Assembly (NCBI GenBank): GCA_029834535.1
Contig: JAQMWT010000310.1
Coordinates: 40,564-104,563 of the forward strand
Reading direction: 5' to 3'
From: Chrysophaeum taylorii
Lineage: Eukaryota; Sar; Pelagophyceae; Pelagomonadales; Pelagomonadaceae
DNA length: 64,000 nt
The notes below the pieces were generated by a model that worked only from the letters and a program-made list of their open reading frames with translations, searched no databases and had not been told where the DNA came from. Each line of letters begins with the position of its first letter. Positions within the stretch are counted from its first letter, which is position 1. The translations under genes were made by a program, and so were the position numbers. Below are positions 8,534 through 63,928 of the stretch, in pieces.

Positions 8534-8613
8534 GGTTGTTGGTGTCCTCCTCGAGTCCACGCTCTCCTTACCCTACTTTAATAATAAATAAAACCCTCGA
8601 ATCATGACATGAC

Positions 8614-35842: not shown

Positions 35843-36016
35843 TCTGTCGATTAGTAGTTAAGACTACATGCTACAAGGCTCTCGCCGCAGATGGCAAGAA
35901 GAAAACATTTTATAAACATTAAGGCTTTCGGCTCATACATTTAGCAAAGAACAGAAAGTAGGCCGCGGGTTGAAGTTTTGACTTTAATTTGACTTTACAA
36001 AACGCAGATTTTGACG

Positions 36017-36215
36017 GCCCGTTTCGAGCATACATAGGGAAAAGAACAGAAAGTAGAGTTCCGTTAGAGTTCTGTCACACACACACTGACATTTCCCAAT
36101 TAATTATTGTGGATCGGCCCGTTTCGAGCATACATAGGGCTTTGAACAGAAAGTATAGGTCCGTTAATCTGTTGTCACTGACGGACACACGTTTCCCAAT
36201 TAATTATTGTGGAAG
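36017..36215. repeat. Tandem duplication, about 103-bp unit
   Basis: CGGCCCGTTTCGAGCATACA then TAGGG, GAACAGAAAGTA, TCCGTTA, CTGTCAC and TTTCCCAATTAATTATTGTGG occur twice (about 36015-36113 and 36116-36213). The second copy abuts the resumed LTR sequence. Confidence 0.8.
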
Positions 36216-36420
36216 CATTCTTGTAGTATTCTTGTAGCATTCTTACTTTCATATACCATCTCTCCATCGTGTTGAGAGGCTTGGTGAGCGCGAGCATGGT
36301 GTGTGGCGAGCATATCCGACCGCGAGTCCGTGTTTTCCTCGTTCAGTGAGGTCTAGGACGAGTCGGTGAGTGCCCCCTTTGTCACCATGTGGTCGGGAGC
36401 GGTTTTTCTGTGCCGCCATA
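36216..36420 (+). repeat. Element 1 left LTR, 3' part
   Basis: Aligns with 45999-46202 of the right LTR: ATTCTTGTAGCATTCTT, ATACCATCTCTCCATC, GTGTGTGGCGAGCATATCCG, CCGTGTTTTCCTCGTTCAGT and the end GTGCCGCCATA. The LTR ends TGTGGCGGC and GCCGCCATA are near-perfect inverted repeats. Confidence 0.88.
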
Positions 36421-36422
36421 CG

Positions 36423-38394: not shown

Positions 38395-40526
38395 AGGACT
38401 GCGGATTCTTCTGGACCAACCCATGATGAAGATGAACACGGAAATCGCGTGGTTTGCAACCGCGATCCGGACCGTTATTACTGTGCGATGTGGAAGCGCA
38501 TTCGAAAGCAGAAGAAGCAACCCATATCGCGTTCCGATTGGGAGAAGCGTGATGATGCATCTCATGCGAACGCCACGCGCGGATCGGAGCCTTCTAATGA
38601 AATTCAAACGGCCCTCACCGAGCTTGGAACCACAATGGCGACCATGGTGAGCGAGGTCAGAGGCATCAAGGATAGCAAATCGTCTTCTACACGACAGCGA
38701 GACGGACGACCACCTTCTAGACGATCGTCGCGCCGACATCGAAGCACGAGCCCTGATCGAAAGGCCAATACTCCTCAAACCAGCCCGAGTCCCCGCCGTC
38801 GCCGCCATAGCCGGAGCTCTAGTCGCAATTCGCGCCGGCGCAGACGTCATCGACAGCGCGATGACGAATATGACGGAGGCCGATATCAGGATAGTTCGGG
38901 ACATTCGAGCGCAACTTTCGCGTTCCAATCTTTATGCGACGCGCCGCCATCGTCGGGAGTTGTCTTTTACCCGACGGCGCGCCCCGCCCGAGTCTCCGAT
39001 GATGTTGCCGATGTCGCTGTGACGAGCAGCCATCGCTTGCAACAGGAGCAAAATACCACCAACGCTCGGATCGTTCGGTGGCCTTCTACATCGTATGTGG
39101 AAGCAATATCAGATGCCACTTTGGATTCTCCGCACTACTGGGAAGACTCAGACTCGGAGACCGACGAGCCGCAGGTTCCAGTGTCCCCCCATTCGTCAAT
39201 GTGCATGTCTTGCAGGGCAGTTCACGATGATGACGTTAGACCTTTTGAGTTGACGTCGGGGACGACGTCTTCTTTTCCTACGCCCCCCCCCGAGACCGTT
39301 TTAGCCGAGACCGTTTTAGCCGATGTTGAGACCGTTTTAGCCGATGTTTTAGCCGATACAGTTTTGGTCGCAGCAGAGCAGACCACAGCGGCGCCGATGG
39401 AGGAGAAGTTGACGGGAATGTCCGATTTGATGGACGAGAAACGACGATTGCCAGAAGAGATAAAGGAGGATATATATGTGCCTCCGATTGAGAAGTGTCA
39501 GAATTTGTTGTCAGCGAAACTGGGGAATGAGGAAGCAGCCGAAGCGGCGAGCGCCAATATAGATTCAGAGGCGAGATGTGGAACGCCAGATATGGCAGCG
39601 GTGACGATGCAGATGCCGGGCGATGCGAAACCGGAGATACGATGTCATCACACTGCACTTTCGCCGAGCGATGGGGAAAAGATCGAGCAAGACCTCATCA
39701 CCATCGGTTGTTTGGACCCTGGTACACTTACGTTTATAGTTGGTCATATTTATAGACGACGAGACGGGCCGAAGTTCGCAACGACTTTAGGCGTGGATGG
39801 AATGGCTGATGTCTCCTATATTTGTCGTGGGATGGTCGAAAAACTGGCAAAGGATAGCATCATCCTTGACCGGGGCGATCTTCCAGTCGAGCGCACCCTG
39901 TACGGGTCAGGATTGAACAAGACGACTATCCACAAATGGGTCGCATTGCGGATTGCGCTTGCGGACGACGTGGCCGTTCCAGTTGTTGCTATTGTGGCCG
40001 ATACTAATCATCTATTTTGCTGGGAGCGCGCGATATTCGGGTGTTGGGAGCCACAGTGGACTACCCGCGAAATCGCATTGGGCTTCTCCGCACACAAGTC
40101 GCCTATGGGCGCAAGATGTTAAAGGTGCAGGATCGACGAGTCGATTCTCCGATTTTGACGTTCAGAACAACTTATGACGAGCGCAATCCCGTGGTAGTTC
40201 AGGTTTATGGGCAACAGCACCATGCGATGCAAAAGAGCCTGTGCACAGTTGAGCACCGAGTATACGCTCGCTTGTGCAAGATTGAAGACCTCCAGCGTCC
40301 ACCGCCGAAACGAGCGGGAGCTTCGACGACTTGGGGAGTCCCTCCAGTTACGCCTTCTCAAAGTTCGAACAGCGATGCCTATGAAGTGATAGCCTATGCT
40401 GCGCGCACGATGAAGGTCGAGCCTGGGCGCGCCTACTGCGTGCCAGTCGCTCTTCCAGAGCCCATGGAAACTGGGCAAGTTTTCGTTGCTACGTCTTCTG
40501 GGTACGAGCAACTCGGGGTAGTCGAT
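38395..40526 (+). CDS. Element 1 Gag-Pol linker, retropepsin-like protease and beta domain
   Basis: Open after the TGA at 38392 up to the T run 40015-40018, then open one frame over to the TGA 40527. Cys residues near the start (VVCNRDPDRYYC) could be a zinc-binding remnant. An Arg/Ser-rich and acidic linker follows, with a short DNA repeat coding ETVLADV units (39292-39370). The protease-like part has TTLGVDGMADVSYICRGMVE and then IVADTNHLF; element 2 shows the matching LGGRDIRVLGAIVDF. This is the retropepsin order, but the active-site triplet reads D-G-M-A, not D-S/T-G-A. A beta-rich domain (VEPGRAYCVPVALPEPMETG) links it to the methyltransferase. Confidence 0.65.
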
Positions 40527-40529
40527 TGA

Positions 40530-42446
40530 GTGTGTTCTTCTCCTGAGGATCATGACAAGATCGCAGCTCGAGTGGCGATATCCTATACCCAGGATGTGCC
40601 GACCGTGATTACTCAAGGTGAAGTCCTTGCTTTGGGCGATATTGTTCGTTTTGATGACGAGCTGAATGCTGAGACGGCCGACGATTTAACGAAGGATGGT
40701 GAAGCCGAATCTAAAAAGGCTAACCTATCATTCACTGTTTCGATCGCAAGCCATCTTACTCAAGGCGATGCGGTTCCCGAACCGATGCTTTTGAGCTCGG
40801 TGCAGAAGGCGTCTCCTTCTGCCGATCAGAAGAAGAATTCTCGTCGAGAATCGCTCGGTGACGACGATTTCGACCGACGAACTGACGAGGAGGAAAAGAA
40901 ATGCCGAGAAGTTACAGAAGGCGAGATTCGCCGAAGGTTTGAAAATGTCCACTTGGTGCCGATCACGTATTGCAAGGTTGTGATGCTCTTTAGCGGCGCC
41001 GGAGGGAGTACTTTAGGACTGCAACGAGCGAACGAGTTGTGCGGGACGTCGTTTCGAGTCGTCCTTGCTCTTGACTCTTCAACAGCTGCCAACAAGGTTC
41101 ATCAGAAGAATTTTCCGAAGATACCTGTGGTTCAGCACACGCGCTGCGGACGATATGACCCGACCCTCCGATTGATCAAGGCTTATTTGCCTGAAGCGGA
41201 ATGGTCATCGTCGATGTGTATAGCGTCTCCACCCTGCGTTCATTCAGCACTCTGCAACTTGACATCCAGAGATGTTGGCAAGGGTGTTACGGCCACTAAC
41301 TGGACGATGAAGCTGTGCAAAATGGCTGGCTTCATGATGTGGCTGATTGAACAGGGGGCGTCCATTATTTCTTATATAGCGCGCTTACACCCTTACGTGT
41401 ACGTCGTCAATTTTCATGATATCACGCCCACTCTGATGAGCTCTCGCGTGCGATTGTTGGTTTCCAGTCACCCACTGCACTTGCAAGAGGCTCCGAAGAC
41501 ATGTGTGAACATGCAACAAAAATTTGCTGCAGCTTTAGGTTATGCTCATGAACGCCACCTGCTCCAGCTGAATAATCTCGGCTCGTCCCGAGAAGCAACA
41601 GATACGGCTTACACCGTTACGCGAGTTCCTCTTCGTTTGGGACCGCATCGCTCGGACACTCAGCCTTTGACTCTCGAGATGACGGCCGAGTTGCTCACGA
41701 TGCCGGTGGACCATGATTGGGCTAGCTTGTCTAAGACAGATTCGTTCAAACATTTAGCGTCTGTCGTCCCTCCAGACACTCTTGCGATTTTAGCAGTCGA
41801 TCTGCACAACTCCGTGACCAGAGGTTTCCGCCAAAGTGGCGAAGTCCTGCCGACCGCGTTGAGCCCGACAGATCGATCCTTTGAGCAGTATTTGCGAATC
41901 TCCGACACCACCTTTCGTCACGTACAGATTCCGCTGTTAAATACGCGTACTCGTGTCGTTAAGTGGGTGTCAAAAGATGATCTCCAGGATCCCACTAAAT
42001 GGGAACCGCCAGAAGTCCCTATGCTTCCGCTTCCAACAGATGCGCCGGGGACGGCTCATGCTTTTCCTGCCCCCCGACAATCAAAGGTGGACGTTCCGCC
42101 GGATCCTGAACCTGAACAGGAGCCGAAAGTAAGGAGCGAGCCGAATGTGCGCGTCAAAGGTGAAAAGATCAATAAGAGCCACCCTGAGGTGAGGTTCAAA
42201 TACGAAGAAAAGTTCGATGTGCCATGGAAGGATGCGCCGCGCGATGCGGACGGTGTACCGTTACCGCAGACTCCCGAGCACGTCAAGGACAATGAGGCGA
42301 TGAAAGTCGTAATTCCGACGAAGGAAGAAGTCGAAAAGGTTGTTCGAGAACTGGGAATTCCCGACAACCCGCATCTGGATGATGATGCGAAGATGATGTT
42401 GAGCCACTGCGTGCAATACGCGTGGGCTTTTTTGATCCGATTATGA
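40530..42446 (+). CDS. Element 1 C5 cytosine DNA methyltransferase part of Pol
   Basis: 638 open codons directly after the TGA at 40527, in the frame of the upstream beta domain. The methyltransferase spans about 40968-41812. Motif I is VVMLFSGAGGSTLGL (FSGAGG codons 40989-41006), then VVLALD with HQKNFP as in the post-motif-II loop, motif IV IASPPC with the catalytic Cys codon at 41235-41237, a motif VI-like MMWLIEQ in place of ENV, motif VIII SSRVRLLVSS, a short target-recognition region, motif IX-like LEMTAELLTMPVDHDW and motif X SVVPPDTLAIL. This is the full C5-MTase order. An acidic linker (from about 42000) leads to RT. The frame ends at the T6 run 42428-42433 where one T seems missing; in element 2 the RT continues in frame. 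Confidence 0.88.
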   Translation: MCSSPEDHDKIAARVAISYTQDVPTVITQGEVLALGDIVRFDDELNAETADDLTKDGEAESKKANLSFTVSIASHLTQGDAVPEPMLLSSVQKASPSADQKKNSRRESLGDDDFDRRTDEEEKKCREVTEGEIRRRFENVHLVPITYCKVVMLFSGAGGSTLGLQRANELCGTSFRVVLALDSSTAANKVHQKNFPKIPVVQHTRCGRYDPTLRLIKAYLPEAEWSSSMCIASPPCVHSALCNLTSRDVGKGVTATNWTMKLCKMAGFMMWLIEQGASIISYIARLHPYVYVVNFHDITPTLMSSRVRLLVSSHPLHLQEAPKTCVNMQQKFAAALGYAHERHLLQLNNLGSSREATDTAYTVTRVPLRLGPHRSDTQPLTLEMTAELLTMPVDHDWASLSKTDSFKHLASVVPPDTLAILAVDLHNSVTRGFRQSGEVLPTALSPTDRSFEQYLRISDTTFRHVQIPLLNTRTRVVKWVSKDDLQDPTKWEPPEVPMLPLPTDAPGTAHAFPAPRQSKVDVPPDPEPEQEPKVRSEPNVRVKGEKINKSHPEVRFKYEEKFDVPWKDAPRDADGVPLPQTPEHVKDNEAMKVVIPTKEEVEKVVRELGIPDNPHLDDDAKMMLSHCVQYAWAFLIRL

Positions 42447-45400
42447 GACTCGTGGACTCGCCACCGGTTTCTCTACGATTTAAAGACGCAAACCCACGAC
42501 CGATCAAGATGACGCCTTATAGGTTGACGCCAGCAAAGCTCGAGTGTCTCAGAAAGCAGATCACTGAGTGGTGTCGCGATGGAGTCATCCGACCGGCGAA
42601 CTCTCCGTGGGGATTCCCTGTACTGATGCTGCCTAAGAAGGGAGCAGAGGCCGGGACGTCGAATGCTTTTCGTGCTGCAGTTGACTTGCGTCAGCTCAAT
42701 GATCAGCTGGTCAATGACAGTTGGCCGAATATTCGTCAAGATGATGCTTTGGCTTTTCTTGCCATGCGCCGTTGGCGGACGTGCATTGATATTCGATGGG
42801 GTTATCATAACCTACGTTTGGACGCCGCCGCTCAGGACGCCGTTACGATGGTTAGTCCACTTGGAGCCCATAGTTTCTTGCGCTTGCCTCTAGGAGTAAA
42901 AACAGCAGGAGCTCTCTTTTGTAAGCAGATGGCTAGCGATTTGTCCACATGGATGTATAAGGACTTGGTCGCGTTTGTCGACGATATTATGATGGGATCG
43001 GATGAACTCCACCGACATTTACAAGTTTTGATTGAAGTGTTGTGCCATTTAGCGCAGCGAGGATATAGTGGACGAACTTCGAAGTTCCACCTCCTCAAGG
43101 ATGAAATCGAGTTTTTGGGACACATTTCGACTCCGGAAGGCTTGAAGCCGAATCCCAAGACGTTAGAAGCGTTGCAGCAGATGCCGATTCCCGGTACGTT
43201 GCCTAATACGTCCCCGAAGACCCAGATTCGATCTTTCATTGGCATGAGCAACTATTGCCGCCGATATGTGAAGAATTATTCGAAGATTGTGGAGCCGCTT
43301 AGGCGATTGTGTCTTGAAGGCGTTAAGTTTGAGTGGACGCCTGAGTGCCAAAAGGCATGGGACACGATCATCGAAGCTTTGGTGGACTCTCGCGGAGTTT
43401 ATCATCCTGACTACGATCTTCCTTTTCAGATCCGCTCGGATGCTTCCAAGGATGGTCTGGGCGCGTATCTTTTTCAGCTCGTGGAAGTCAAGGACGAAAC
43501 CGGCAAGGTGACACGAGAGGAACGAGTAATTGAGTATTGGAGCCGAGCTGTGCCGAAAGAGATGCGGAACTATGAGCCTCGCCGGCTAGAGCTACTGGCA
43601 GTTATTCTTTCTCTTGAGCATTTCCGCTCTTATATCGAAGGTCACAAGACGATCCTTGAAACGGATCATCGCAACTTGACGTTTTTACGAAAGGCGAAGC
43701 ACTCGTCTGGGCAGTTGGCTCGATGGGCGATGCGGCTCGCCAACTTTGATCCTGAATTGGGTTACAAACCAGGGAAGTCGCCGGGAATGAGTATCCCTGA
43801 CTGTCTCTCTCGCAATCCTATAGATCATGTCATCGAGACGGACGAGTTTGGTGAACCCTTGAACCACGCGTATCTAGTGTGCCAAGAACTCCCTCGCCCT
43901 GTCGATGATGAAGGAGTACCTTTACCTGGGTGCCATGTCATTCTGTCGTTTGTTACGACTGAGTTGCCTGTGGAGGAAGAGGAAGGAGACCTCGATGATC
44001 CGATGCAATTGGTCACGTCTCATGCTACGAAACTACATCAGAAGCAACGTCTGCAGACCCAGCCTAGTATTTTCCGTGATGCCGATGATTACCAAGAGTA
44101 CATCGACAAGATCCCGGATAATTTTACTTTGGAAGAGATAGCCAATGAGCACATCACTGATGCTACTTGCGAGGACATTCGTTATCGCATGGCTCAGGGC
44201 CATTCTCTTCGTCGGTACGGAGCCAATTATCGCTATCAAGTGGTGAAAGGAGTTCTCTACCGTGCCGCACCTGACTTGCACCCGATGATAGTCGCACCCC
44301 GAACTTTACGGACGCGCATCATCCGATTGTACCATGACACACCTCTCAATGGTGGTCACATGGGTCGTCAAAGTACAGTGCAGTCGATACTTGAACGTTT
44401 TTGGTGGCCCCACATGTCTAATGAGGTGGGCGCTTACATTGCTGGTTGCATAGTGTGCAAGAAAGCTCGTACGCCTGAACCAAAGAGAGCAGGTCTGCTT
44501 CAGCAACCGGTGTATGATGGTGATTGCGCCGTCCTTTGTATGGATTTGTTTGGACCTTTGCCCAGTGCTGGTCCCGAGACATATCTGATCATCTTTTTTG
44601 ATCCATTTTCTCATTTCTTGATTCTTGACGTACTACACCATAAGACTGCTGAGTCAATCCTCGAGTCTTTTGTCGCGAATATATTACTCAAGGGTTATCT
44701 ACCTCAGAGGATTCGTACCGACAATGGGAAAGAGTTCGTCAACAAGTTGATGGAAGAGTTTTGTCATCTTTTCAATGTTCGGTATAGTACCACGATTCCG
44801 CATCATGCTCAGGCTAATCCAGCGGAAAGGGTCAACCGCTTTATCAAGGCTTTCCTCCGTGCGTGCCTTCAAAACCGCAAGATCACGGAATGGCCCGAAT
44901 TCGCGGAGTACATTGCTTTTTGCTACAATCGTAAGTTTATTCCGGGAACTCAGATCTCACCTTTCATGCTTCGTCTTAACCTGCAGCATTTATTGCCAGC
45001 CGATTATACGATCATGGATCTTGATGTCCGCCGCCTGCTGAAAACTCGCTCCGATGTTGTGGCAGAGACTCGCGAGAAGTTGAAGTTCTATACCGCTACG
45101 GTGAACGAAGCTCGCGAGAAGGCACTTCGTAAACAACGTCTCGCTTACAATGCGGACCATGTCGATGTGGAATATGAAGAATGTTCACATGTTCTGCTCT
45201 ACATCCCTTTTCTTCAGAACAAGCTTCGACCGGAATGGCGCGGTCCATTCGTTATTTTGGAACGCTTGTCTCCGGTCACTTACAGGATTGAGTCTCTTGA
45301 TTCTCCTCCTGAACGCCGCTGTGTTCATGTCAGTCAGATCACCCCTGTGATGGTTTCTCCAGTGGTCGATCGAGCTGTGCCCAAACCCAAGGAGACCTTC

Positions 45401-45847
45401 CGGGATGATTACAAGCACGGTAAGTTCGTTGTCTTTCGGATTCCAGATAACAAACGGTCCGATTGGCGAAAGAAGATTTACGTAGCTGAAGTTCATGAGC
45501 CCTATGATTTTGTCAATGATCGAGTCGCTCTGCATTTTTGTGCTGATCTTGGTCCCCATGACAAGGTTTCTTCTTATTACAAGCCTACCTCACATCTCTC
45601 TACTCGCAAGCTTAAGCCGGAATACGAGGACGTGGACGGTCGCAGTTTCACCGACAAGACCAAGGTCAACAACAGTACCACTCCTTGTGTCACCGATTTC
45701 GCCCCGCATGATATCGATGTGTTGATTCCTAAGTTCACTTTGCGTGGTGGACGCGTTCCCGAACCTGTCGTTGAACGTGTCTACAAGAAGATTCGTTCCC
45801 GAGATGCTCATTCAGCCAAGGCTCGTGATTCTCGCCGGACTCGCTGA
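42422..45847 (+). CDS. Element 1 reverse transcriptase, RNase H and integrase
   Basis: 1141 open codons; the start is not a real initiator but the other side of a one-base break. RT: MTPYRLTPAKLECLRKQI, PWGFPVLMLPKK, AVDLRQLND and the catalytic FVDDIMMGS (YxDD variant, about 42973-42999). RNase H: FQIRSDASKDGLGAYL, a catalytic Glu in RRLELLAVILSLEHF, and LETDHRNLTFL. Integrase: HxxxH with C-x2-C zinc finger (HDTPLNGGHMG and CIVCKKA), then the D-D-E core at CMDLFGP, RTDNGKEFVN and HAQANPAERVNRF. After the integrase there is an extra C-terminal domain (GKFVVFRIPDNKRSDWRKKI and following), ending RRTR. No breaks across 3.4 kb, so this part could still be functional. Confidence 0.95.
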   Translation: MGFFDPIMRLVDSPPVSLRFKDANPRPIKMTPYRLTPAKLECLRKQITEWCRDGVIRPANSPWGFPVLMLPKKGAEAGTSNAFRAAVDLRQLNDQLVNDSWPNIRQDDALAFLAMRRWRTCIDIRWGYHNLRLDAAAQDAVTMVSPLGAHSFLRLPLGVKTAGALFCKQMASDLSTWMYKDLVAFVDDIMMGSDELHRHLQVLIEVLCHLAQRGYSGRTSKFHLLKDEIEFLGHISTPEGLKPNPKTLEALQQMPIPGTLPNTSPKTQIRSFIGMSNYCRRYVKNYSKIVEPLRRLCLEGVKFEWTPECQKAWDTIIEALVDSRGVYHPDYDLPFQIRSDASKDGLGAYLFQLVEVKDETGKVTREERVIEYWSRAVPKEMRNYEPRRLELLAVILSLEHFRSYIEGHKTILETDHRNLTFLRKAKHSSGQLARWAMRLANFDPELGYKPGKSPGMSIPDCLSRNPIDHVIETDEFGEPLNHAYLVCQELPRPVDDEGVPLPGCHVILSFVTTELPVEEEEGDLDDPMQLVTSHATKLHQKQRLQTQPSIFRDADDYQEYIDKIPDNFTLEEIANEHITDATCEDIRYRMAQGHSLRRYGANYRYQVVKGVLYRAAPDLHPMIVAPRTLRTRIIRLYHDTPLNGGHMGRQSTVQSILERFWWPHMSNEVGAYIAGCIVCKKARTPEPKRAGLLQQPVYDGDCAVLCMDLFGPLPSAGPETYLIIFFDPFSHFLILDVLHHKTAESILESFVANILLKGYLPQRIRTDNGKEFVNKLMEEFCHLFNVRYSTTIPHHAQANPAERVNRFIKAFLRACLQNRKITEWPEFAEYIAFCYNRKFIPGTQISPFMLRLNLQHLLPADYTIMDLDVRRLLKTRSDVVAETREKLKFYTATVNEAREKALRKQRLAYNADHVDVEYEECSHVLLYIPFLQNKLRPEWRGPFVILERLSPVTYRIESLDSPPERRCVHVSQITPVMVSPVVDRAVPKPKETFRDDYKHGKFVVFRIPDNKRSDWRKKIYVAEVHEPYDFVNDRVALHFCADLGPHDKVSSYYKPTSHLSTRKLKPEYEDVDGRSFTDKTKVNNSTTPCVTDFAPHDIDVLIPKFTLRGGRVPEPVVERVYKKIRSRDAHSAKARDSRRTR

Positions 45848-45877: not shown

Positions 45878-46202
45878 TGTGGCGGCAACTCCTGACCGCT
45901 AAGGCTTACCCTCCCTTCTCAAGGCTTGATACCCGTTCAACGGGACGCCCTTTCCTACTTTCCTATAGTAACATCATACCTATCCCTCGTGAGAAGCGTA
46001 TCTTGCAGCATTCTTGTAGCATTCTTGCTATCGTATACCATCTCTCCATCTTGTTGAGAGGCTTGGTGAGCGTGAGCAAGGTGTGTGGCGAGCATATCCG
46101 ACCCCGAGTCCGTGTTTTCCTCGTTCAGTGAGGTCTAGGACGAGTCGGTGAGTACCCCCTTTGTCACCCGGGGGTCGGGAGTGGTTTTTCTGTGCCGCCA
46201 TA
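45878..46202 (+). repeat. Element 1 right LTR
   Basis: 325 bp from TGTGGCGGCAACTCC to GTGCCGCCATA. It matches the two left LTR parts with scattered substitutions. It contains a duplicated GCATTCTTGTA motif and TCGTTCAGTGAGGTCTAGGA. Confidence 0.9.
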
Positions 46203-46207
46203 CCCCT
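46203..46207 (+). repeat. Right target-site duplication (CCCCT) of element 1
   Basis: Same five bases as 32524-32528, directly after the LTR end. Confidence 0.75.
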
Positions 46208-54899: not shown

Positions 54900-55446
54900 G
54901 GGGGGGTGGAGCGCTGCTGGTGACTACCACCAGCTGCTTTAGCTTCCCTCCGACTCTCGCGGCATACGGCGTGGCGCAGACGATCACTCTCGCGTTCGTC
55001 CTCGAGCGCGCGCATCGCATCCTCGTCGCCGGCGTGCGCTTCTTCTAAACGTTTGTCGCGCCTTGCGACGTGGCGCAGACGATCAGCCTCGCGTTCGTCC
55101 TCGAGCGATCAGCCTCGCGTTCGTCCTCGAGCGCGCGCATCGCGTCCTCGTCGCAGGCGTGTGCTTCTTCTAGACGATCATCACGCCGTTCTGCAATTGC
55201 AATACGCTTGGCCTCGCGTTGACGCTCAAGCAGCATCGCCGCATCCTCGTCTCCGGCGGCAAGAGCTTCACGACGAGCGGCCCGCAATCGCCCCATCTTG
55301 TCGCGACGGACCGCACGTTCGCGCTCGAGAAAGCGATCGTCTCGAACACGCCACAAGCGCTTCCACGCATCAACAGCGCGCTTGTACACTTTCTCTTCGC
55401 CATTCCACTCCTGGGCGAGGACACTCGAGTACCAGTTCCTTTTCAA
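54900..55446 (-). pseudogene. Broken coiled-coil protein fragment with internal repeats
   Basis: On the minus strand, 55446 to 55045 reads a charged helix: RLWRVRDDRFLERERAVRRD, RLRAARREALAAGDEDAAML, then RLEEAHACDEDAMRALEDER. The LEEAHAxDEDAMRALEDERE unit and ALEDEREADR piece repeat further on in another frame (to about 54950), from tandem DNA repeats of CGCGTTCGTCCTCGAGCG. There is no ATG at the 5' end. Likely a truncated gene; function unknown. Confidence 0.4.
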
Positions 55447-57490: not shown

Positions 57491-57930
57491 GCGACTATAT
57501 CGGTCGCAGCGAACTAGTGCATCTTGCATTCTCTACACGGTCCGGACAAGCCGTGCGCGCCCTGATCAAGCGCGCCGACAAGGAATTCCAGAAGGACCAT
57601 TGCCGTGGGAAAGTTCCCCGGCCGGATACGTTTGTCGTCGGAAGTGACGACGCGCGATTTGGTGCTAACCGACGCGCAACCCGGGTACCGCTGCCGCAGG
57701 CGAGCGGAGTGAGATCGCAACTCACGGATAAGGCATTGTTTGCCGGGCAGAGACGAGTTCTGCCGCCCACCGTACGGATAGATTTGTCGGTGGAAGACGC
57801 ACGCAACGACGATATTACGCGTGTCGTGGACGATTAGAAGTTCCGGAGCCGAAGGAGCACGAGAACGACGACGACTCAACCATTTTGGACCCGCTCTGAT
57901 CTCGGCCGACTAGAACGAGCCAGAGCCGAT

Positions 57931-60627
57931 ATGGAAGACGATGATGCTGCCGTCGAGCAGCTACGATATGAAGAACCGCCAAGCCGTCAGGATGAGACGA
58001 ACGAGCGGAATAATGATGATGATAATGATGACGATGAAGAAGAGCACGATACAGAAGTTGACGAGGAAGAAGAGCTAGACTACAACTACGACAAGCCCAC
58101 GGAGAGACCGGCGGGAGGACGATCGACAGCTCCGTCAACGCGTGCAGAATCCCCGGATGCAACGAAAATGAATGAGTTCTACGAAGCTCACTTGCGGGCA
58201 TTACGCGAAGAGAACGAACGCGCGCCAGAACGACTTTTAAAACAAATAGGGGAAGAGAACGAACGAAAAGAACGGCTACACCGGAATGAGATAAAAATAA
58301 TGCGAGAGCAACTGCGTATGGCCAATGCTCGAGCAGACGCCCTCCAAGATCAAGCAAGCGCGTTGACACGTGAAATAGATGAATTGCGTATGCCGAATCG
58401 CCCGAGGCGAGCGAACGGTCTCGAGGGAGAATTCCGAACTTCGGAGGTACCGCCGCCCACGCGAACGCGAGCGAAAGTCAGGAAGCCGCGCGACGACGAC
58501 GACGAGTCGTCCGAGATGACCGAAACGTCGTTAAACTACGATCAAGAGCAATCCAAGTCGAAGGAGCTCACCCAAACCAAAATCCCCACAGAATCGAAGA
58601 ATTTGACCGAAACGTCGTTAAACTACGGGTCGAAGCCGTCTACCGCTTCTAACCCGGTGTCACCGTTGGTGGCACGATATGATTTGTCGTCAGCTGACAC
58701 AACCCTCGGTCTTGACGACGCGCCGGAGTTATGTGTGAATCCGATTTACGAGCCCCGTGCAGCCGATGACGCCCAAAGTAAGGGACCCGCCGCTGCTACG
58801 CTCGATGCTATGAGTTTACCTCCGAACATTCAAGTGGATGGCACGTCGCCTCCACGATCGATCGACGATGCGTCGCAGAGGATTACCTCGAATGATAAGC
58901 GCGCACCTGAGTACACACCCATCGAACGTCACGTGCCCTTTGGTGGCCAGTTTTTGACAGATATGACGTCGGGGACGACGCCTCCTTCTTTTGCAGCCCC
59001 CCCCGACGAACCGACTGCAGACGTTTTTGCAGATGTTTTATTCCCTTTGACGATGGCAGACAATTCGTGTGCCGACATTTTTAGTGACGAGGCGATTGCC
59101 GATATTCGAAGCGATGGAGTGGATGAGAGGCCGAGTGAAACGGCCGAGAAAATGAATACGAAAGCGGAAGAGATGAAGAATCTTATAACGCATGAACTGC
59201 CTTTGGAGCTCAGTGAAAGCCCTGGCGTATTACTCACGAACGAAGAGTTCAAAGATTTTCAGCCTGCATATGATGATGGCTACGTGATAAAGAAAGATCC
59301 CGAACATACTATGAGGGATGAGTATAGCTGCCGCCCGGAACCGAATTTGGATGGGACGATCAGCATGGATAATAGGAAGATGAGCGTACCGACGATAAGG
59401 ATACGAGCTCAATGTTTCCTGAGGAAGAAACCGCCAGAGCGGAAAGAAGTACAATTCCGACCCCGAGGCACGGAGTTATTGGCCAACCGAGATTTAATTT
59501 ACGTTTGGTCGGAGGTTTGGCAAAAAGACGACGAAGGCGTCGATGTTTGGATAGACGAGACGATTGTGCCTGTTCGGATAGACTTGGGAGCACCAGTCGC
59601 CTACAGGGACGATCCAGAGGTACTAGGACCTGCCGAACTGACGCCAGAGAGAGACAAAGATAACAAGAGCCCCAGTCGAAGTTCGCGCCGGCACAGACCA
59701 CGCCGATCGCGCGACGACGAATACGACGGAGGCCGACACCAATATAATTCGAGTTTTTCGAGCGCAACGCTCGCATTTACGACCCCTTGCGGTCAACAGT
59801 TACCATTAGGAGTGACGGTGTACCCGAACACGGACACCCGCACCGACGACGCAGCCGACGCCCTTGCCGCGGCCGCATTCGAAGATCTTGCTCGCCCACC
59901 GATGGACGAGCCACCCAACGACGTGCTGACCAATCGTCGGTCTTTGGCACAGATTTATGAGCAGATGTCGAGCGATGAGCTCGAAGATTCGAGCGAGGAA
60001 CTTGAAGCTCCACGATACTGGGAAGGCGATTCAGATTCGGAAGATGAAGAAGCTACACTTTGTGAACCAGTGTCTACGTTAACGTTATTGGACGAGTCGT
60101 CCATGGACGACCCACCGTTTATTTTTGATGAGGAAGCCCTCGATGCCATCGGCTTATCTTTGGACCCTCCAGAGACGACCGTTGGCGACCGAACTGGCTG
60201 TGAGCCAGACATGAATTTCTGCAGTGATAGCTCGTGCGCGCATTCGACGGATGAGACGATGACAAGCGCGAGTATTGCAGACGACGATTTTACGACAGAG
60301 TTGACGTCGGGGACGACGCCATCTTTTCCTGCGGACCCCCCCGAAACGGTTTCGATTACTACGGATCGAGACACGGATACGCCGCCGGAAGAAAAGGATA
60401 GATTTATGAAGAAGATTAGCAGCGTTCTCGAGTGTGACGAAGACGAGCAGACGTGGAACCTGCAGGATTGGTGGACGAAAGCTCAGAATTTCTTGCTGAA
60501 GAAGCCACCAGAACAACCGCGCAGCTGCAGACTCAAAGCCGCAGCTGACACGGAACCGATCGCCGATGCTGATGAGGATCAGCAGGCGACGAATGAATTT
60601 ACAGATGTATTCTGGAAGACGAAATGA
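57931..60627 (+). CDS. Element 2 ORF1: acidic Gag-like polyprotein without recognisable capsid
   Basis: 898 codons, ATG at 57931. Strongly acidic N-terminus, a coiled coil (about residues 85-150, EENERKERLHRNEIKIMREQ), then a long low-complexity acidic and Ser/Thr-rich part with repeated phrases (TETSLNYG twice, LTSGTTPSFP and related twice). Residues of about 585-650 (RDDEYDGGRHQYNSSFSSAT) match the linker region of element 1, so collinearity returns there. The capsid-like domain of element 1 (SLKPDNFKLVIDGRD onward) is absent. The end is TGA 60625-60627, overlapping the ATG of the next frame as ATGA. Confidence 0.65.
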   Translation: MEDDDAAVEQLRYEEPPSRQDETNERNNDDDNDDDEEEHDTEVDEEEELDYNYDKPTERPAGGRSTAPSTRAESPDATKMNEFYEAHLRALREENERAPERLLKQIGEENERKERLHRNEIKIMREQLRMANARADALQDQASALTREIDELRMPNRPRRANGLEGEFRTSEVPPPTRTRAKVRKPRDDDDESSEMTETSLNYDQEQSKSKELTQTKIPTESKNLTETSLNYGSKPSTASNPVSPLVARYDLSSADTTLGLDDAPELCVNPIYEPRAADDAQSKGPAAATLDAMSLPPNIQVDGTSPPRSIDDASQRITSNDKRAPEYTPIERHVPFGGQFLTDMTSGTTPPSFAAPPDEPTADVFADVLFPLTMADNSCADIFSDEAIADIRSDGVDERPSETAEKMNTKAEEMKNLITHELPLELSESPGVLLTNEEFKDFQPAYDDGYVIKKDPEHTMRDEYSCRPEPNLDGTISMDNRKMSVPTIRIRAQCFLRKKPPERKEVQFRPRGTELLANRDLIYVWSEVWQKDDEGVDVWIDETIVPVRIDLGAPVAYRDDPEVLGPAELTPERDKDNKSPSRSSRRHRPRRSRDDEYDGGRHQYNSSFSSATLAFTTPCGQQLPLGVTVYPNTDTRTDDAADALAAAAFEDLARPPMDEPPNDVLTNRRSLAQIYEQMSSDELEDSSEELEAPRYWEGDSDSEDEEATLCEPVSTLTLLDESSMDDPPFIFDEEALDAIGLSLDPPETTVGDRTGCEPDMNFCSDSSCAHSTDETMTSASIADDDFTTELTSGTTPSFPADPPETVSITTDRDTDTPPEEKDRFMKKISSVLECDEDEQTWNLQDWWTKAQNFLLKKPPEQPRSCRLKAAADTEPIADADEDQQATNEFTDVFWKTK

Positions 60628-61199
60628 ATGATTTATGGGAGGGGTCCTTTGCTTCCGTGAACTACGAAGACCAGGATCCCCTACCAGCACTGATTCCCTC
60701 TGAGATTGTCTTGGAGGAAGAGCGGAAGCCGCCAGATAAAGAGGCTGCCGCGAGCATTATGGCGAAGACGCCAACAACAGATAATACGAAAGCTCAAGCC
60801 GCGGTATCGATGCCCAACCCCGGAGACGAGCGATTCAGAGCCCGATGTGCTCACACTTCGTTGACGCCGCGAGATGGCAAGACGATCGAAGATGATTTGA
60901 TTACCCTCAGTTGCTTAGATACGGGTACTTTAACGTTTATAGCCTGTCACATCTACAGGAATCGTGACGGACCGAAATTCTCGACGACCATTGGTGTCGA
61001 TGGAATGGCAGATGTTTCTTATATTTGCCGAGAAATGGTCAAAAAGTTGACCAAAGATCAGTTGATTTTCGATGAAGGCGAACTTCCGATTAAGCGCAAG
61101 CTGTACGGATCAGGGTTGAATACGACGACGATCCATCGTTGGATCGCCCTTCGGGTCGCTTTCGCCGACGACTTGCTGACCCCATTGTTGCTATTGTAG
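60624..61199 (+). CDS. Element 2 retropepsin-like protease frame
   Basis: 191 codons, ATG at 60624 overlapping ORF1's stop. It has SCLDTGTLTFIACHIYRNRD, then TTIGVDGMADVSYICREMVK, the same D-G-M-A active-site variant as element 1. The frame ends just after FADDLLTP; at the C4 run 61180-61183 one more C would join it to the 61139-63928 frame, which continues IVAIVADTNYLFLLGGRDI, the second half of a retropepsin. Confidence 0.65.
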   Translation: MNDLWEGSFASVNYEDQDPLPALIPSEIVLEEERKPPDKEAAASIMAKTPTTDNTKAQAAVSMPNPGDERFRARCAHTSLTPRDGKTIEDDLITLSCLDTGTLTFIACHIYRNRDGPKFSTTIGVDGMADVSYICREMVKKLTKDQLIFDEGELPIKRKLYGSGLNTTTIHRWIALRVAFADDLLTPLLLL

Positions 61200-63928
61200 C
61201 CGATACGAATTATCTGTTCCTGTTGGGAGGGCGCGATATACGAGTTTTAGGAGCCATCGTGGATTTTCCCCATGATCGGATCTGTTTTTGTCGAACCCAA
61301 GTCGTCTACGGGCGCAAGAAGATTAAAGTTAAGGATGAACGAGTCGATGCACCAATCGTGACCTTTCGGTCTATTTACGATCGAAATCCGATAACCGTAC
61401 CGATTTACAATCATCAACACGATGCCTTTCGGCAGAGTCTCGACCTGGTCAAGACTCGAGTTTATGCTCGTTTGAGCACGATTAAAGATCTCCGAAGCCC
61501 GCCGCCGGAACGTAAGGTAGCCATGGCTACGCGGGGACATGCTACGACCAAATTCTCCCCAGCTCCGGGAGAAGACGCGCGAGAAGTAATCGCTTATGCC
61601 GCGCGCACGCTTCAAATCGAGCCCGGTCGAACGTACAATCTACCGGTTATTTTGTCGAAGCCTATGGAAAAAGGACAGGTTTTCGTCGCTACGTTTGCTG
61701 AGAACGAGCAGTTGGGAGTTGTCGAAGGAATGTGTTCTTCTTGCGAAGAGCGCGACCGGTCCGCTGCTCGGGTGGCAGTTACTGCCACGGAAGAAGTGCC
61801 GACGATCGTCACTCAAGGCGAAGCCCTTGCGATTGGTGATATCGTTAGGTACGAAGATGAGTTGAACGTCTCTACGATCAACGAACTTACGAAAGAATGT
61901 GAAGAAGGATACGACAAGGGGAACGTTTCTTTCACCGTTTCTGTCGCTAGTCACTTGACGCGATGCGACGAATCTCCCCCGCCGATGCTGCTGAGCACGG
62001 TGCAGAAGGACGCTATGACCGCTATGACGGACAAGTCCACCCTCAAACGACCTGAAGGCAGCGACGATTTCGCTCGAAGGTCAGAAAAAGATGAAAAGAA
62101 ATGCCGCGAGATCACCGAAGCGGAGATCCGCCGCCGATATGAAAAGGTTCAATGGCTTCCAATCACTTATCGCAAGGTGGTGATGCTGTTCAGTGGAGCC
62201 GGAGGCAGTACTCTTGGTCTCCAACGAGCCAACGAAACGTGTGGGACGTCGTTTCGAGTCGTGTTGGCACTCGATGCGTCGGACACCGCCAACCAGATCC
62301 ACCACAAGAACTTTCCGAATATTCCTGTGGTGCAGCACACATTGTGTGGTCGCTATGTTACAACCTTACGGTTGATCGAATCTTATTTACCCTACGCGGA
62401 ATGGTCGTCGTCGATGTGTGTCGCGTCGCCACCCTGCGTACACTCCGCTCTGTGCAATTTGACCTCCAGAGATGTCGGGAAAGGAGTTACCGCTACCCAC
62501 TGGACGATGAAATTATGCAAGATGGCTGGTTTCTTCATGTGGTTGATAGAGCAGGAGGCTTCGATTATTTCTTACGTTGCACGTTTGCACCCGTACGTAT
62601 ACGTCGTCAATTTTTACGACATAACTCCTAGTTTGATGAGCTGTCGCGTGCGATTGTTGGTTTCCAGCCATCCGCTCCATTTGCGCGCAGTTCCAAAGAC
62701 TTGCAAGAATATGCAGCAAAAGTTCGCCGGAGCACTTGGTTACGCCGACGAACGACATTTACTTCAGATGAACAATTTAGGATCATCACGAGCCGCGACC
62801 GACGCAGCTTATACTGTTACGCGTGTCCCGCTTCGCGTAGGACCGCACCGTTCTGATTACAGATCTCTGAATCTAGAAATGACTTCGGAGTTGCTGACGA
62901 TGCCCCCTGATTTTGAGTGGGCCGGCTTCTCCAAGACGACCTCGTTGAAACACTTGGCGTCCGTCGTGCCACCTGACACGATAGCCTTATTAATGCTCGA
63001 TCTGCACAACTCTGTGACCAAGGAATTTCACCTGAGCGGCGAAGCTTTGCCGTCAGCGTTGAGTCCTGCAGACCGACCGTTTGATTATTATTTACAAATT
63101 GATGAAACCACCCTTCGTCACGTCCAAGTTCCGCTGTTAAACACGCGCACACGTGTCATACGATGGGTGTCGACTGATGATCTTCAAGATCGCACCAAAT
63201 GGAAACCTCCAGAGGTACCGTTGATTCCGCCTGCAACAGATGAGCCGGGGACGTCTCATGCTTCTTCTGCTGGGCCCCCCCGACAACCAAATTTAGACGT
63301 TCCGCCAGATCCTGAGCGAGATCGGGAACCGAAGATTAAGAGCGAGCCGAGTGTTCGTGTCAAAGGCGAGAGGATCAACAAAAGCCACCCGGAAGTGAAA
63401 CTAAAATACGAGAAAAAGTTCGATGTGCCATGGAAAGATGCGCCGCGCGATGCCGAGGGTGCACCACTGCCGCAGACTCCTGAGCATGTCAAGGACAACG
63501 AAGCGATGAAAGTTAAAATTCCTACGAAGGAAGAAGTTGACAAGGTTGTGCAGGAGCTGGGAATTCCTGACAATCCGCACTTAGATGACGAGGCGAAACT
63601 GATGCTCCGTCACTGTGTGCAATATTCTTGGGCCTTTTTCGACCCGATTATGAGACCTGTGGACTCGCCTCCTGTGTCTCTACGATTCAAAGACGCGAAT
63701 CCGCGACCGATTAAGATGACGCCCTACCGATTGACGCCTGCGAAGCTCGATTGTCTCCGCAAGCAGATCAGCGAGTGGTGCCGGGATGGAGTCATTCGTC
63801 TCCGGCCAACTCACCTTGGGGCTTTCTGTGTTGATGCTTCGCCGAAGAAAGGAGCTGAGATTGGAACGTCAAACGCGTTCCCCGTGCTGCAGTTGACTTA
63901 CGTCAGCTCAACGATCAATTGTCAATGA
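61139..63928 (+). CDS. Element 2 Pol: protease end, beta domain, C5 cytosine methyltransferase and RT start
   Basis: 929 open codons (no real initiator; it is the downstream side of a one-base break). It runs LLGGRDIRVLGAIVDFPHDR (retropepsin end), a beta domain (IEPGRTYNLPVILSKPMEKG), then the methyltransferase (about 62150-63010): VVMLFSGAGGSTLGL, HHKNFP, VASPPC with Cys codon 62435-62437, FMWLIEQ, SCRVRLLVSS, LEMTSELLTMPPDFEW and SVVPPDTIALL. A Pro/acidic linker follows and RT begins with FFDPIMRPVDSPPVSLRFKD and KMTPYRLTPAKL, all in one frame. This shows that the methyltransferase is translated as part of Pol. RT is disturbed by several small indels after about 63795. Confidence 0.88.
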   Translation: MDRPSGRFRRRLADPIVAIVADTNYLFLLGGRDIRVLGAIVDFPHDRICFCRTQVVYGRKKIKVKDERVDAPIVTFRSIYDRNPITVPIYNHQHDAFRQSLDLVKTRVYARLSTIKDLRSPPPERKVAMATRGHATTKFSPAPGEDAREVIAYAARTLQIEPGRTYNLPVILSKPMEKGQVFVATFAENEQLGVVEGMCSSCEERDRSAARVAVTATEEVPTIVTQGEALAIGDIVRYEDELNVSTINELTKECEEGYDKGNVSFTVSVASHLTRCDESPPPMLLSTVQKDAMTAMTDKSTLKRPEGSDDFARRSEKDEKKCREITEAEIRRRYEKVQWLPITYRKVVMLFSGAGGSTLGLQRANETCGTSFRVVLALDASDTANQIHHKNFPNIPVVQHTLCGRYVTTLRLIESYLPYAEWSSSMCVASPPCVHSALCNLTSRDVGKGVTATHWTMKLCKMAGFFMWLIEQEASIISYVARLHPYVYVVNFYDITPSLMSCRVRLLVSSHPLHLRAVPKTCKNMQQKFAGALGYADERHLLQMNNLGSSRAATDAAYTVTRVPLRVGPHRSDYRSLNLEMTSELLTMPPDFEWAGFSKTTSLKHLASVVPPDTIALLMLDLHNSVTKEFHLSGEALPSALSPADRPFDYYLQIDETTLRHVQVPLLNTRTRVIRWVSTDDLQDRTKWKPPEVPLIPPATDEPGTSHASSAGPPRQPNLDVPPDPERDREPKIKSEPSVRVKGERINKSHPEVKLKYEKKFDVPWKDAPRDAEGAPLPQTPEHVKDNEAMKVKIPTKEEVDKVVQELGIPDNPHLDDEAKLMLRHCVQYSWAFFDPIMRPVDSPPVSLRFKDANPRPIKMTPYRLTPAKLDCLRKQISEWCRDGVIRLRPTHLGAFCVDASPKKGAEIGTSNAFPVLQLTYVSSTINCQ

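What the first reader, a model, noticed from the sequence alone, without database searches (positions are those of the whole stretch)
40968..42446. A retrotransposon Pol polyprotein with an embedded C5 cytosine DNA methyltransferase
Seen: between the protease/beta domain and the RT there is a protein with FSGAGG (motif I), a PPC catalytic motif, a R-x-R motif VIII and a VVPPDT motif X, in C5-MTase order. In the second element (61139-63928) this is in one frame with the RT. Known: C5 MTases with these motifs methylate cytosine in DNA; retrotransposon capture of DNMTs has been reported in dinoflagellates and charophytes (de Mendoza et al. 2018, from memory). Inferred: the enzyme is packaged or made with RT and could methylate element cDNA or the insertion site, either to hide, to self-limit or to mimic host marks. 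Placement between PR and RT of a Ty3-type element in a probable stramenopile may be new.
Basis: partly seen in the sequence, partly recalled or inferred. Interest (0 to 1): 0.95.

Follow-up and report, generated by a model that had tools for sequence, protein, structure and literature searches.

The report
Retrotransposon carrying its own DNA methyltransferase
A multi-copy jumping gene in an unidentified eukaryote carries a DNA-methylating-enzyme-like domain inside its own replication polyprotein, and a second jumping-gene family in the same genome carries a different one at the same place, which suggests such capture is repeatedly useful to mobile DNA.

Summary
Confirmed and extended. The stretch encodes a very divergent C5-cytosine methyltransferase-like domain (PF00145 above cut-off in both window copies; motif I-IV matches a Dcm-type protein far above shuffles) between the protease-like region and RT-RNaseH-integrase of a Ty3/gypsy element with ~214-bp terminal repeats. 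It is no chimera: 109 places carry the domain in two capped searches. PPC is invariant in 32 of 32 copies, the proposed motif-VI Glu kept in 31; dN/dS between two subfamilies is about 0.06, like RT's. New: a Ty1/copia family in the same genome (92 matching stretches) carries a different C5-MTase, with PCQ and ENV, behind a protease-like motif; the two enzymes show no detectable relationship. The genome also holds DNMT5 and DNMT2. Retrotransposon DNMTs, one in a Gypsy Pol, are published (PMC5890265), so this is a new variant of a known kind. Limits: the C-terminal half has no significant similarity, fold prediction failed, no CpG-decay footprint in family A, activity unknown, host not identified.

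The parts
36209..36421 (+). left terminal repeat (LTR) of element copy 1
   Evidence: 198/215 identical to 45989-46203; exact ends, target-site duplication and primer-binding site not determined
45989..46203 (+). right terminal repeat (LTR) of element copy 1
38395..40122 (+). ORF with gag-like region (by position only) and the start of the protease-like domain (VDGMADVSYI)
   Evidence: translation; no relevant Pfam hit; protease by motif and position only
40008..40529 (+). ORF with end of protease-like domain (LLGARDIRVLG) and beta-rich piece
   Evidence: translation; no Pfam hit
40530..42446 (+). ORF: end of beta-rich piece, C5-MTase-like domain, linker; same frame as 40008-40529
40884..41861 (+). 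C5-MTase-like core (326 aa)
   Evidence: PF00145 26.7 bits, cut-off 22 (on 40914-41861); profile match to a Dcm-type protein
40989..41006 (+). motif I FSGAGG (SAM site)
   Evidence: the three Gly kept in 31, 30 and 31 of 32 copies
41229..41237 (+). motif IV PPC, catalytic Cys
   Evidence: 32 of 32 copies
41346..41354 (+). I-E-Q in place of motif VI E-N-V; Glu kept
   Evidence: Glu in 31 of 32 copies; lines up with ENV of P0008; assignment otherwise by spacing
41445..41453 (+). R-x-R, proposed motif VIII
   Evidence: both Arg in 32 of 32 copies; assignment by order only
41763..41780 (+). VVPPDT, proposed motif X
   Evidence: first Pro 32 of 32, second 31 of 32 copies; assignment by order
42386..45847 (+). 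Pol remainder: RVT_1, RNase H, H2C2, rve integrase core, integrase C-terminal domain
   Evidence: Pfam; the reading frame differs from that of the MTase ORF in this copy
57838..60627 (+). gag-like ORF of element copy 2 (by position only)
   Evidence: no significant Pfam hit
60597..61199 (+). start of protease-like domain of copy 2
   Evidence: by motif only
61094..63928 (+). copy 2: protease end, C5-MTase-like domain and start of RT in one frame
   Evidence: RT start by identity to copy 1
62084..63061 (+). C5-MTase-like core of copy 2, 80% identical to copy 1

Best explanation
A Ty3/gypsy LTR retrotransposon family (family A) took a C5-cytosine methyltransferase gene into its pol gene between the protease-like region and RT, and keeps it under selection. 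Shown: position, copy number, selection, conservation of the catalytic residues, homology up to the catalytic motif. Inferred: the polyprotein is cut by the element's protease, the methyltransferase is packaged with RT and integrase, and it puts methyl groups de novo on the new cDNA before or at integration. In a host with a DNMT5, in the literature a maintenance enzyme, such a mark could be copied at every replication, so a new copy would arrive looking like resident, methylated DNA, and/or quiet itself. A second, copia family (B) has the same arrangement with another C5-MTase.
For: PF00145 above cut-off in both window copies, matched by 14 of 14 copies scanned; profile match to a Dcm-type protein, 73.4 against null maximum 20.6; RT-RH-IN in gypsy order; in-frame fusion in copy 2, and 28 of the 86 matches listed lie without a stop in open frames of 1,000 aa or more; PPC 32 of 32, Glu 31 of 32; omega A1xA2 0.06 for the MTase, 0.05 for RT, 0.15 for the linker; family B: PF00145 plus RVT_2, PCQ 14 of 14, VEN 14 of 14, omega 0.18; DNMT5 in the same genome. 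Literature: SymbioDIRS DNMTs can methylate CG de novo, and the authors propose methylation of cDNA (PMC5890265, abstract and Discussion read).
Against: No excess of C/T differences at CG over CHG or CHH among 25 A1 copies (0.062, 0.064, 0.062); CpG observed/expected is 1.21 and 1.39 over the two window copies, so no footprint of long CG methylation. Motif VI is not ENV. The C-terminal half shows no significant similarity to Dcm, DNMT2 or DNMT5 (at best 30 of 500 shuffles reach the score). AlphaFold gave no confident model (pLDDT 32.8). The tested SymbioLINE-Dnmt did not methylate DNA in yeast (PMC5890265 Discussion), so a retrotransposon DNMT need not be active on DNA. No expression or methylation data here. 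dS between subfamilies is saturated (median 2.19), so omega is approximate.
Confidence: 0.55

Rival explanations
1. The enzyme acts on RNA, not DNA: the element RNA or its tRNA primer is methylated during assembly or reverse transcription.
For: The PDB chains of the C5-MTase kind that the window enzyme finds are DNMT2-type (E 0.26-0.41, 0.23-1.6), at noise level: 2 of the 5 hits are unrelated GGA1 chains at 0.45 and 1.4. The profile of the host DNMT2 alone scores above its shuffles (30.2, null maximum 18.2, 132 columns). De Mendoza et al. raise RNA methylation for SymbioLINE (PMC5890265 Discussion).
Against: The match to the Dcm pair P0008 is much stronger (73.4, null maximum 20.6), though P0008 was itself found with this enzyme and two domains make a better profile than one.
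Confidence: 0.15
2. The domain no longer methylates; it is kept as a nucleic-acid-binding or structural part of Pol.
For: Motif VI N and V lost, motifs VIII and X only partly recognisable, C-terminal half divergent.
Against: PPC of the active site invariant in 32 of 32 copies and Glu kept in 31, also between subfamilies only about 80% identical; family B keeps PCQ and VEN in 14 of 14. But 130 of 326 columns are invariant in these copies, so invariance alone is weak evidence.
Confidence: 0.15
3. The enzyme acts in trans on the host: it methylates host genes or rival elements and is kept because it changes the chromatin around the element.
For: High copy number of both families; host DNMT5 could maintain such marks (literature).
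Against: No methylation data; an enzyme made as part of Pol is expected to stay with the particle (inference).
Confidence: 0.12
4. Assembly chimera or contamination.
For: None found; only one relative in the protein search.
Against: 109 separate places on many contigs carry the domain, and it lies directly upstream of 36 of the 85 best RT matches even with capped lists.
Confidence: 0.01

Closest known systems
KnitGypsy-Dnmt3 of Klebsormidium nitens (PMC5890265)
   Same: LTR Gypsy element with a C5-MTase inside the Pol ORF; several copies; purifying selection (Ka/Ks < 0.2 there, about 0.06 between subfamilies here)
   Different: There a DNMT3-class enzyme and DIRS-like repeat arrangement; here an enzyme that finds no DNMT3 chain, with I-E-Q for ENV, and terminal direct repeats. 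Sequences were not compared directly (none at hand)
SymbioDIRS-Dnmt3 and SymbioLINE-Dnmt of Symbiodinium (PMC5890265)
   Same: Retrotransposon-borne DNMTs in hundreds of copies; in SymbioDIRS in the same ORF as RT
   Different: DIRS (tyrosine recombinase) and LINE elements; here integrase-bearing gypsy and copia elements
DNMT3 members in LTR Copia and DIRS elements (PMC12344493, one sentence)
   Same: A copia element with a DNMT is mentioned, as for family B
   Different: Said to be DNMT3; the family B profile finds 11 PDB chains, HhaI and other C5-MTases, none of them DNMT3
Dcm-type C5-MTases (PF00145, TIGR00675; P0008)
   Same: Motif I-IV about 40% identical over 80 columns to the P0008 pair
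   Different: Stand-alone enzymes; ENV intact; C-terminal half not detectably similar. P0008 comes from a metagenome contig; that it is bacterial is my reading
'Orphan' eukaryotic DNMTs (PMC12344493, section 5)
   Same: C5-MTases outside the DNMT1/2/3/5/6 clades, some in LINE elements or giant-virus inserts
   Different: Defined there by a tree that could not be repeated here

Membership tests
C5-cytosine methyltransferase (PF00145) | Family HMM above curated cut-off | tested here: met
   23.8, 23.5 and 26.7 bits against 22; 14 of 14 copies match at E up to 1, single scores of the other 13 not printed; the match covers only profile positions 2-52
C5-cytosine methyltransferase (PF00145) | Motif I and catalytic Pro-Cys of motif IV | tested here: met
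   PPC 32 of 32, motif-I glycines 30-31 of 32; profile alignment through PPC
C5-cytosine methyltransferase (PF00145) | Motif VI ENV | tested here: not met
   I-E-Q instead; Glu kept in 31 of 32. Family B does have it (VEN 14 of 14)
C5-cytosine methyltransferase (PF00145) | C-terminal motifs VIII-X | tested here: inconclusive
   R-x-R and VVPP present in order, but 30 to 312 of 500 shuffles reach the alignment score in 8 comparisons
C5-cytosine methyltransferase (PF00145) | Rossmann MTase fold | tested here: inconclusive
   AlphaFold pLDDT 32.8, pTM 0.21; a second job was never accepted
Ty3/gypsy retrotransposon | RT-RNaseH-integrase order with zinc-binding integrase | tested here: met
Ty3/gypsy retrotransposon | Long terminal direct repeats | tested here: met
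   198/215 identical, 9.8 kb apart; ends, TSD and PBS not determined
DNMT3-class retrotransposon DNMT (as KnitGypsy/SymbioDIRS) | DNMT domain of DNMT3 class | tested here: inconclusive
   No DNMT3 chain among 5 PDB hits at E up to 10, of which 3 are DNMT2 and 2 unrelated; no tree and no direct comparison possible
DNMT3-class retrotransposon DNMT (as KnitGypsy/SymbioDIRS) | DNMT in Pol, kept by purifying selection | tested here: met
DNMT3-class retrotransposon DNMT (as KnitGypsy/SymbioDIRS) | De novo CG methylation | not testable with these tools
   needs an assay
DNMT2 (tRNA methyltransferase) | Clear sequence similarity over the whole domain | tested here: inconclusive
   hhalign to host DNMT2: score 30.2 above null maximum 18.2, 132 columns, but probability 16%; the part behind PPC not significant (312 and 51 of 500)
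DIRS retrotransposon | Tyrosine recombinase instead of DDE integrase | tested here: not met
   rve integrase core present
Ty1/copia (family B) | RVT_2 reverse transcriptase downstream of integrase | tested here: met
   RVT_2 97.9 and 132.7 bits in 2 of 2 frames; rve upstream of it in one frame only, 17.3 bits, below the cut-off 32.6

The most novel reading that the evidence does not exclude
In this genome two LTR retrotransposon superfamilies independently took up different C5-MTases at the same site behind the protease, and these element enzymes are the main source of new (de novo) cytosine methylation in a host whose own recognisable DNA enzyme is the maintenance-type DNMT5: the parasite writes the mark and the host copies it.
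Probability: 0.18. Interest if true: 0.92.

Novelty: new variant of a known kind. Interest (0 to 1): 0.72.

Why it matters
The cases of DNMTs inside retrotransposons that I found in print come from a few lineages far apart. Two parallel captures in one genome, in two superfamilies and at the corresponding polyprotein position, would argue that a methyltransferase travelling with RT gives LTR elements a repeatable advantage. If the enzymes are active, a DNMT5-bearing host becomes a natural test of how de novo methylation arises where the known host enzyme only maintains it.

Tried and rejected
Homologues: P0003 region 330-660 found 1 protein (P0008) among 4,960 candidates; a family B query found none among 854; the 14-row alignment A2 found none among 5,376. 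Viral contigs: none for either enzyme. Structure: one AlphaFold job on the two window copies, no confident model, so no fold search was made. Pairwise tests of the part behind PPC were not significant for A (A1 and A2 rows against Dcm domain 1, Dcm domain 2, DNMT2, DNMT5: 116, 59, 312, 131 and 30, 45, 51, 30 of 500 shuffles reach the score) nor for B (314, 68, 339, 250 of 500); family B is nevertheless supported as far as motif VIII by profile (54.8 against null maximum 23.6) and matched by Pfam in 5 of 5 rows. B against DNMT2 alone and DNMT5 alone is not above shuffles (18.6 and 15.0; null maxima 20.8 and 22.9). CpG-decay test negative for A1; in B a small CG excess (0.147 against 0.113 and 0.128; in the 18 closest pairs 0.078 against 0.052 and 0.064). 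Whether DNMT-less close relatives exist stayed open: 49 of 85 best RT matches have no MTase match directly upstream in our lists, but the lists were capped at 85-86 scored of about 1,400 candidates. LTRs of family B were not recognised inside the 9.9-kb stretches. Host name: not obtained; a guess by contig number in the literature gave nothing useful.

Full report
WHAT WAS CHECKED. The window is contig C310:40564-104563 of an unnamed 70.8-Mb, 697-contig genome. The frame 40530-42446 reads through a protein with FSGAGG, PPC, R-x-R and VVPPDT in that order. Pfam DNA_methylase hits it at 23.8 bits (cut-off 22; E 3.5e-5), but only over profile positions 2-51; copy 2 scores 23.5. In alignment A2, 14 of 14 copies match PF00145 at E up to 1 (best 1e-6; first member 26.7 bits, the others' scores not printed) and 14 of 14 match TIGR00675, the first member far below its cut-off (18.5 against 100.65). 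Downstream, 42386-45847 encodes RVT_1, RNase H, integrase zinc finger, integrase core and integrase C-terminal domain in Ty3/gypsy order. Direct repeats of about 214 bp, 198/215 identical, lie 9.8 kb apart around the element. Protease-like motifs are visible upstream but had no Pfam support.

STATE OF THE WINDOW COPIES. Copy 1 has a stop between protease piece and methyltransferase, and RT in another frame. Copy 2 has protease end, methyltransferase and the start of RT in one frame, 61094-63928. Of the 86 matches listed, 28 lie without a stop inside the match in open frames of 1,000 aa or more; two of these frames are 3,063 and 3,067 aa.

IT IS A MULTI-COPY FAMILY (A). Two searches with the domain gave 85 and 86 matches, together 109 places after merging. 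Both searches scored only part of about 1,400 candidates, so the number of places is a lower bound; on the other hand some places may be two alleles, since contigs C10 and C297 have nearly the same length and carry matches at nearly the same positions. Two subfamilies show: A1 (like copy 1) and A2 (like copy 2, about 79-80% identical in the domain), parted by a branch with support 1.000 in a FastTree of 32 rows.

IS IT A C5-MTASE? Profile comparison of family A with the two domains of the Dcm-type protein P0008 scores 73.4, and with DNMT2 added 82.1, against at most 20.6 and 19.9 in 20 column shuffles each; the alignment runs from motif I through PPC at about 40% identity. P0008 was found with family A (E 4.8e-6), so it is a favourable partner. 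The host DNMT2 alone scores 30.2 (null maximum 18.2), DNMT5 alone 15.8 (null maximum 25.2). Behind PPC nothing is significant: in eight comparisons 30 to 312 of 500 shuffles reach the score. A three-row alignment sets the I-E-Q of family A on E-N-V of P0008, and the T-x-V-P ... VPP end on that of P0008. In 32 copies, the two window copies among them, PPC is invariant, Glu of I-E-Q is kept in 31, both Arg of R-x-R in 32, PP of VVPP in 32 and 31; 130 of 326 columns are invariant in all. AlphaFold with two sequences gave pLDDT 32.8 and decides nothing. Motif names and spacing of C5-MTases are recalled knowledge.

SELECTION. By Nei-Gojobori, between 25 A1 and 7 A2 copies (175 pairs; 167 usable for the domain and 175 for the linker; for RT 125, since two A2 rows lack coverage), median omega is 0.06 for the methyltransferase core, 0.15 for the linker and 0.05 for RT. 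Median dS is 2.19, 0.96 and 1.61, so these are approximate. Within A1 omega is 0.27, 0.49 and 0.31 (292, 294, 298 pairs), within A2 0.15, 0.13 and 0.52 (21, 21, 10 pairs), as expected where dead copies are included. Between subfamilies the domain is thus held about as tightly as RT.

A SECOND FAMILY (B). Of 57 PF00145 hits in the genome, C634 is DNMT2 (E 7.7e-39 to PDB 1g55) and C621 is DNMT5 (E 7.8e-131 to PDB 7r76, recalled to be the Cryptococcus Dnmt5 structure and named there 'Rad8'). Of the other 55 I hold sequence for 14 distinct copies (among L003-L008 and L039-L050), and all 14 align to one element family; the rest were not read. Two of its long frames (1,868 and 1,935 aa) hold PF00145 and then RVT_2, one with a sub-threshold integrase core between them: Ty1/copia order, with an IDGGAS protease-like motif before the methyltransferase. 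A search with this domain gave 92 matching stretches, some copies being split in two. Motif IV PCQ and VEN of ENV are invariant in 14 of 14; omega over 91 pairs is 0.18, against 0.16 for the protease-like part (89 pairs), 0.11 for integrase (55) and 0.26 for RT (21). Its profile matches Dcm plus DNMT2 from motif II to VIII (54.8, null maximum 23.6). A against B is not above its shuffles (18.6, null maximum 23.5). So the same genome holds two LTR superfamilies with C5-MTases that are not recognisably related, each behind the protease-like part. Two captures are the simplest reading; one ancient capture followed by exchange and extreme divergence is not excluded.

METHYLATION FOOTPRINT. Among 25 A1 copies (300 pairs) C/T differences are no more frequent at CG (0.062) than at CHG (0.064) or CHH (0.062); for 7 A2 loci 0.039, 0.029, 0.037; for 12 B copies 0.147, 0.113, 0.128. 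CpG observed/expected is 1.21 over the copy 1 element, 1.39 over copy 2, and 1.00 and 0.81 in the two terminal repeats. There is no sign of decay through 5mC in family A and at most a small one in B. This does not exclude methylation (other context, rare deamination, young copies) but gives it no support.

MECHANISM. Most likely the enzyme is released from Pol, packaged, and methylates cDNA or the fresh insert; all these steps are inferred. De Mendoza et al. report that retrotransposon DNMTs (SymbioDIRS) can methylate CG de novo, that the tested SymbioLINE enzyme did not methylate DNA in yeast, and propose cDNA methylation as self-labelling, protection, or self-limitation (PMC5890265: abstract, sections 9 and 11 and passages read). 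The DNMT5 of this genome matters because DNMT5 is described as a maintenance enzyme, and Cryptococcus as lacking de novo activity (PMC10538959, passages): a mark set once could be inherited. Whether this host has a de novo enzyme is open; the PF00145 search reads no introns and scored 123 of 474 candidates.

NOVELTY. DNMTs in retrotransposons are known: SymbioLINE, SymbioDIRS-Dnmt3, KnitGypsy-Dnmt3 (PMC5890265), and a sentence on DNMT3 in LTR Copia and DIRS elements (PMC12344493, section 5 read). I found no report of an enzyme outside DNMT3 in a gypsy or copia Pol, nor of two such families in one genome, in the eight searches of the held library that bear on it (of most papers listed I saw the listing only, of PMC9998398, PMC12477816 and PMC6338049 passages). 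The library lacks most subscription journals. Verdict: new variant of a known kind.

Noticed in passing
L046:704-6307 (-), L045:4097-9901 (+), and the places: Ty1/copia family B with its own C5-MTase between protease-like and integrase regions; 92 matching stretches in the genome.
   Followed up: partly
L002 (G000:C621:15462-18998), open frame 2,086 aa: Host DNMT5 (E 7.8e-131 to PDB 7r76); whether the SNF2 part follows could not be read.
   Followed up: partly
L001 (G000:C634:8824-9801): Host DNMT2.
   Followed up: yes
families A1 and A2: RT is 93-95% identical in protein between subfamilies while the methyltransferase is only about 79%; the between-subfamily omega values are alike.
   Followed up: partly
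G000:C10 and G000:C297: Contigs of 209,419 and 210,199 bases with element matches at nearly the same positions (46945/46966; 5155/5146): probably two alleles kept apart in the assembly.
   Followed up: no
36015-36213: A 99-bp unit in two tandem copies (82%) directly outside the left terminal repeat.
   Followed up: no
54981-55187: 82-nt direct repeat pair, 88%, spacing 125.
   Followed up: no
3629-8572 (-): Long host ORF with SAC3/GANP and two RRM stretches, 1,647 aa.
   Followed up: no
L050:411-1459 and 4245-5296: Inverted 81% repeat in a family B locus, probably a nested or neighbouring family B fragment.
   Followed up: no
protease-like regions of A and B: Both show D-G-[MG] instead of the usual D-[ST]-G of retropepsins (usual motif recalled).
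   Followed up: no
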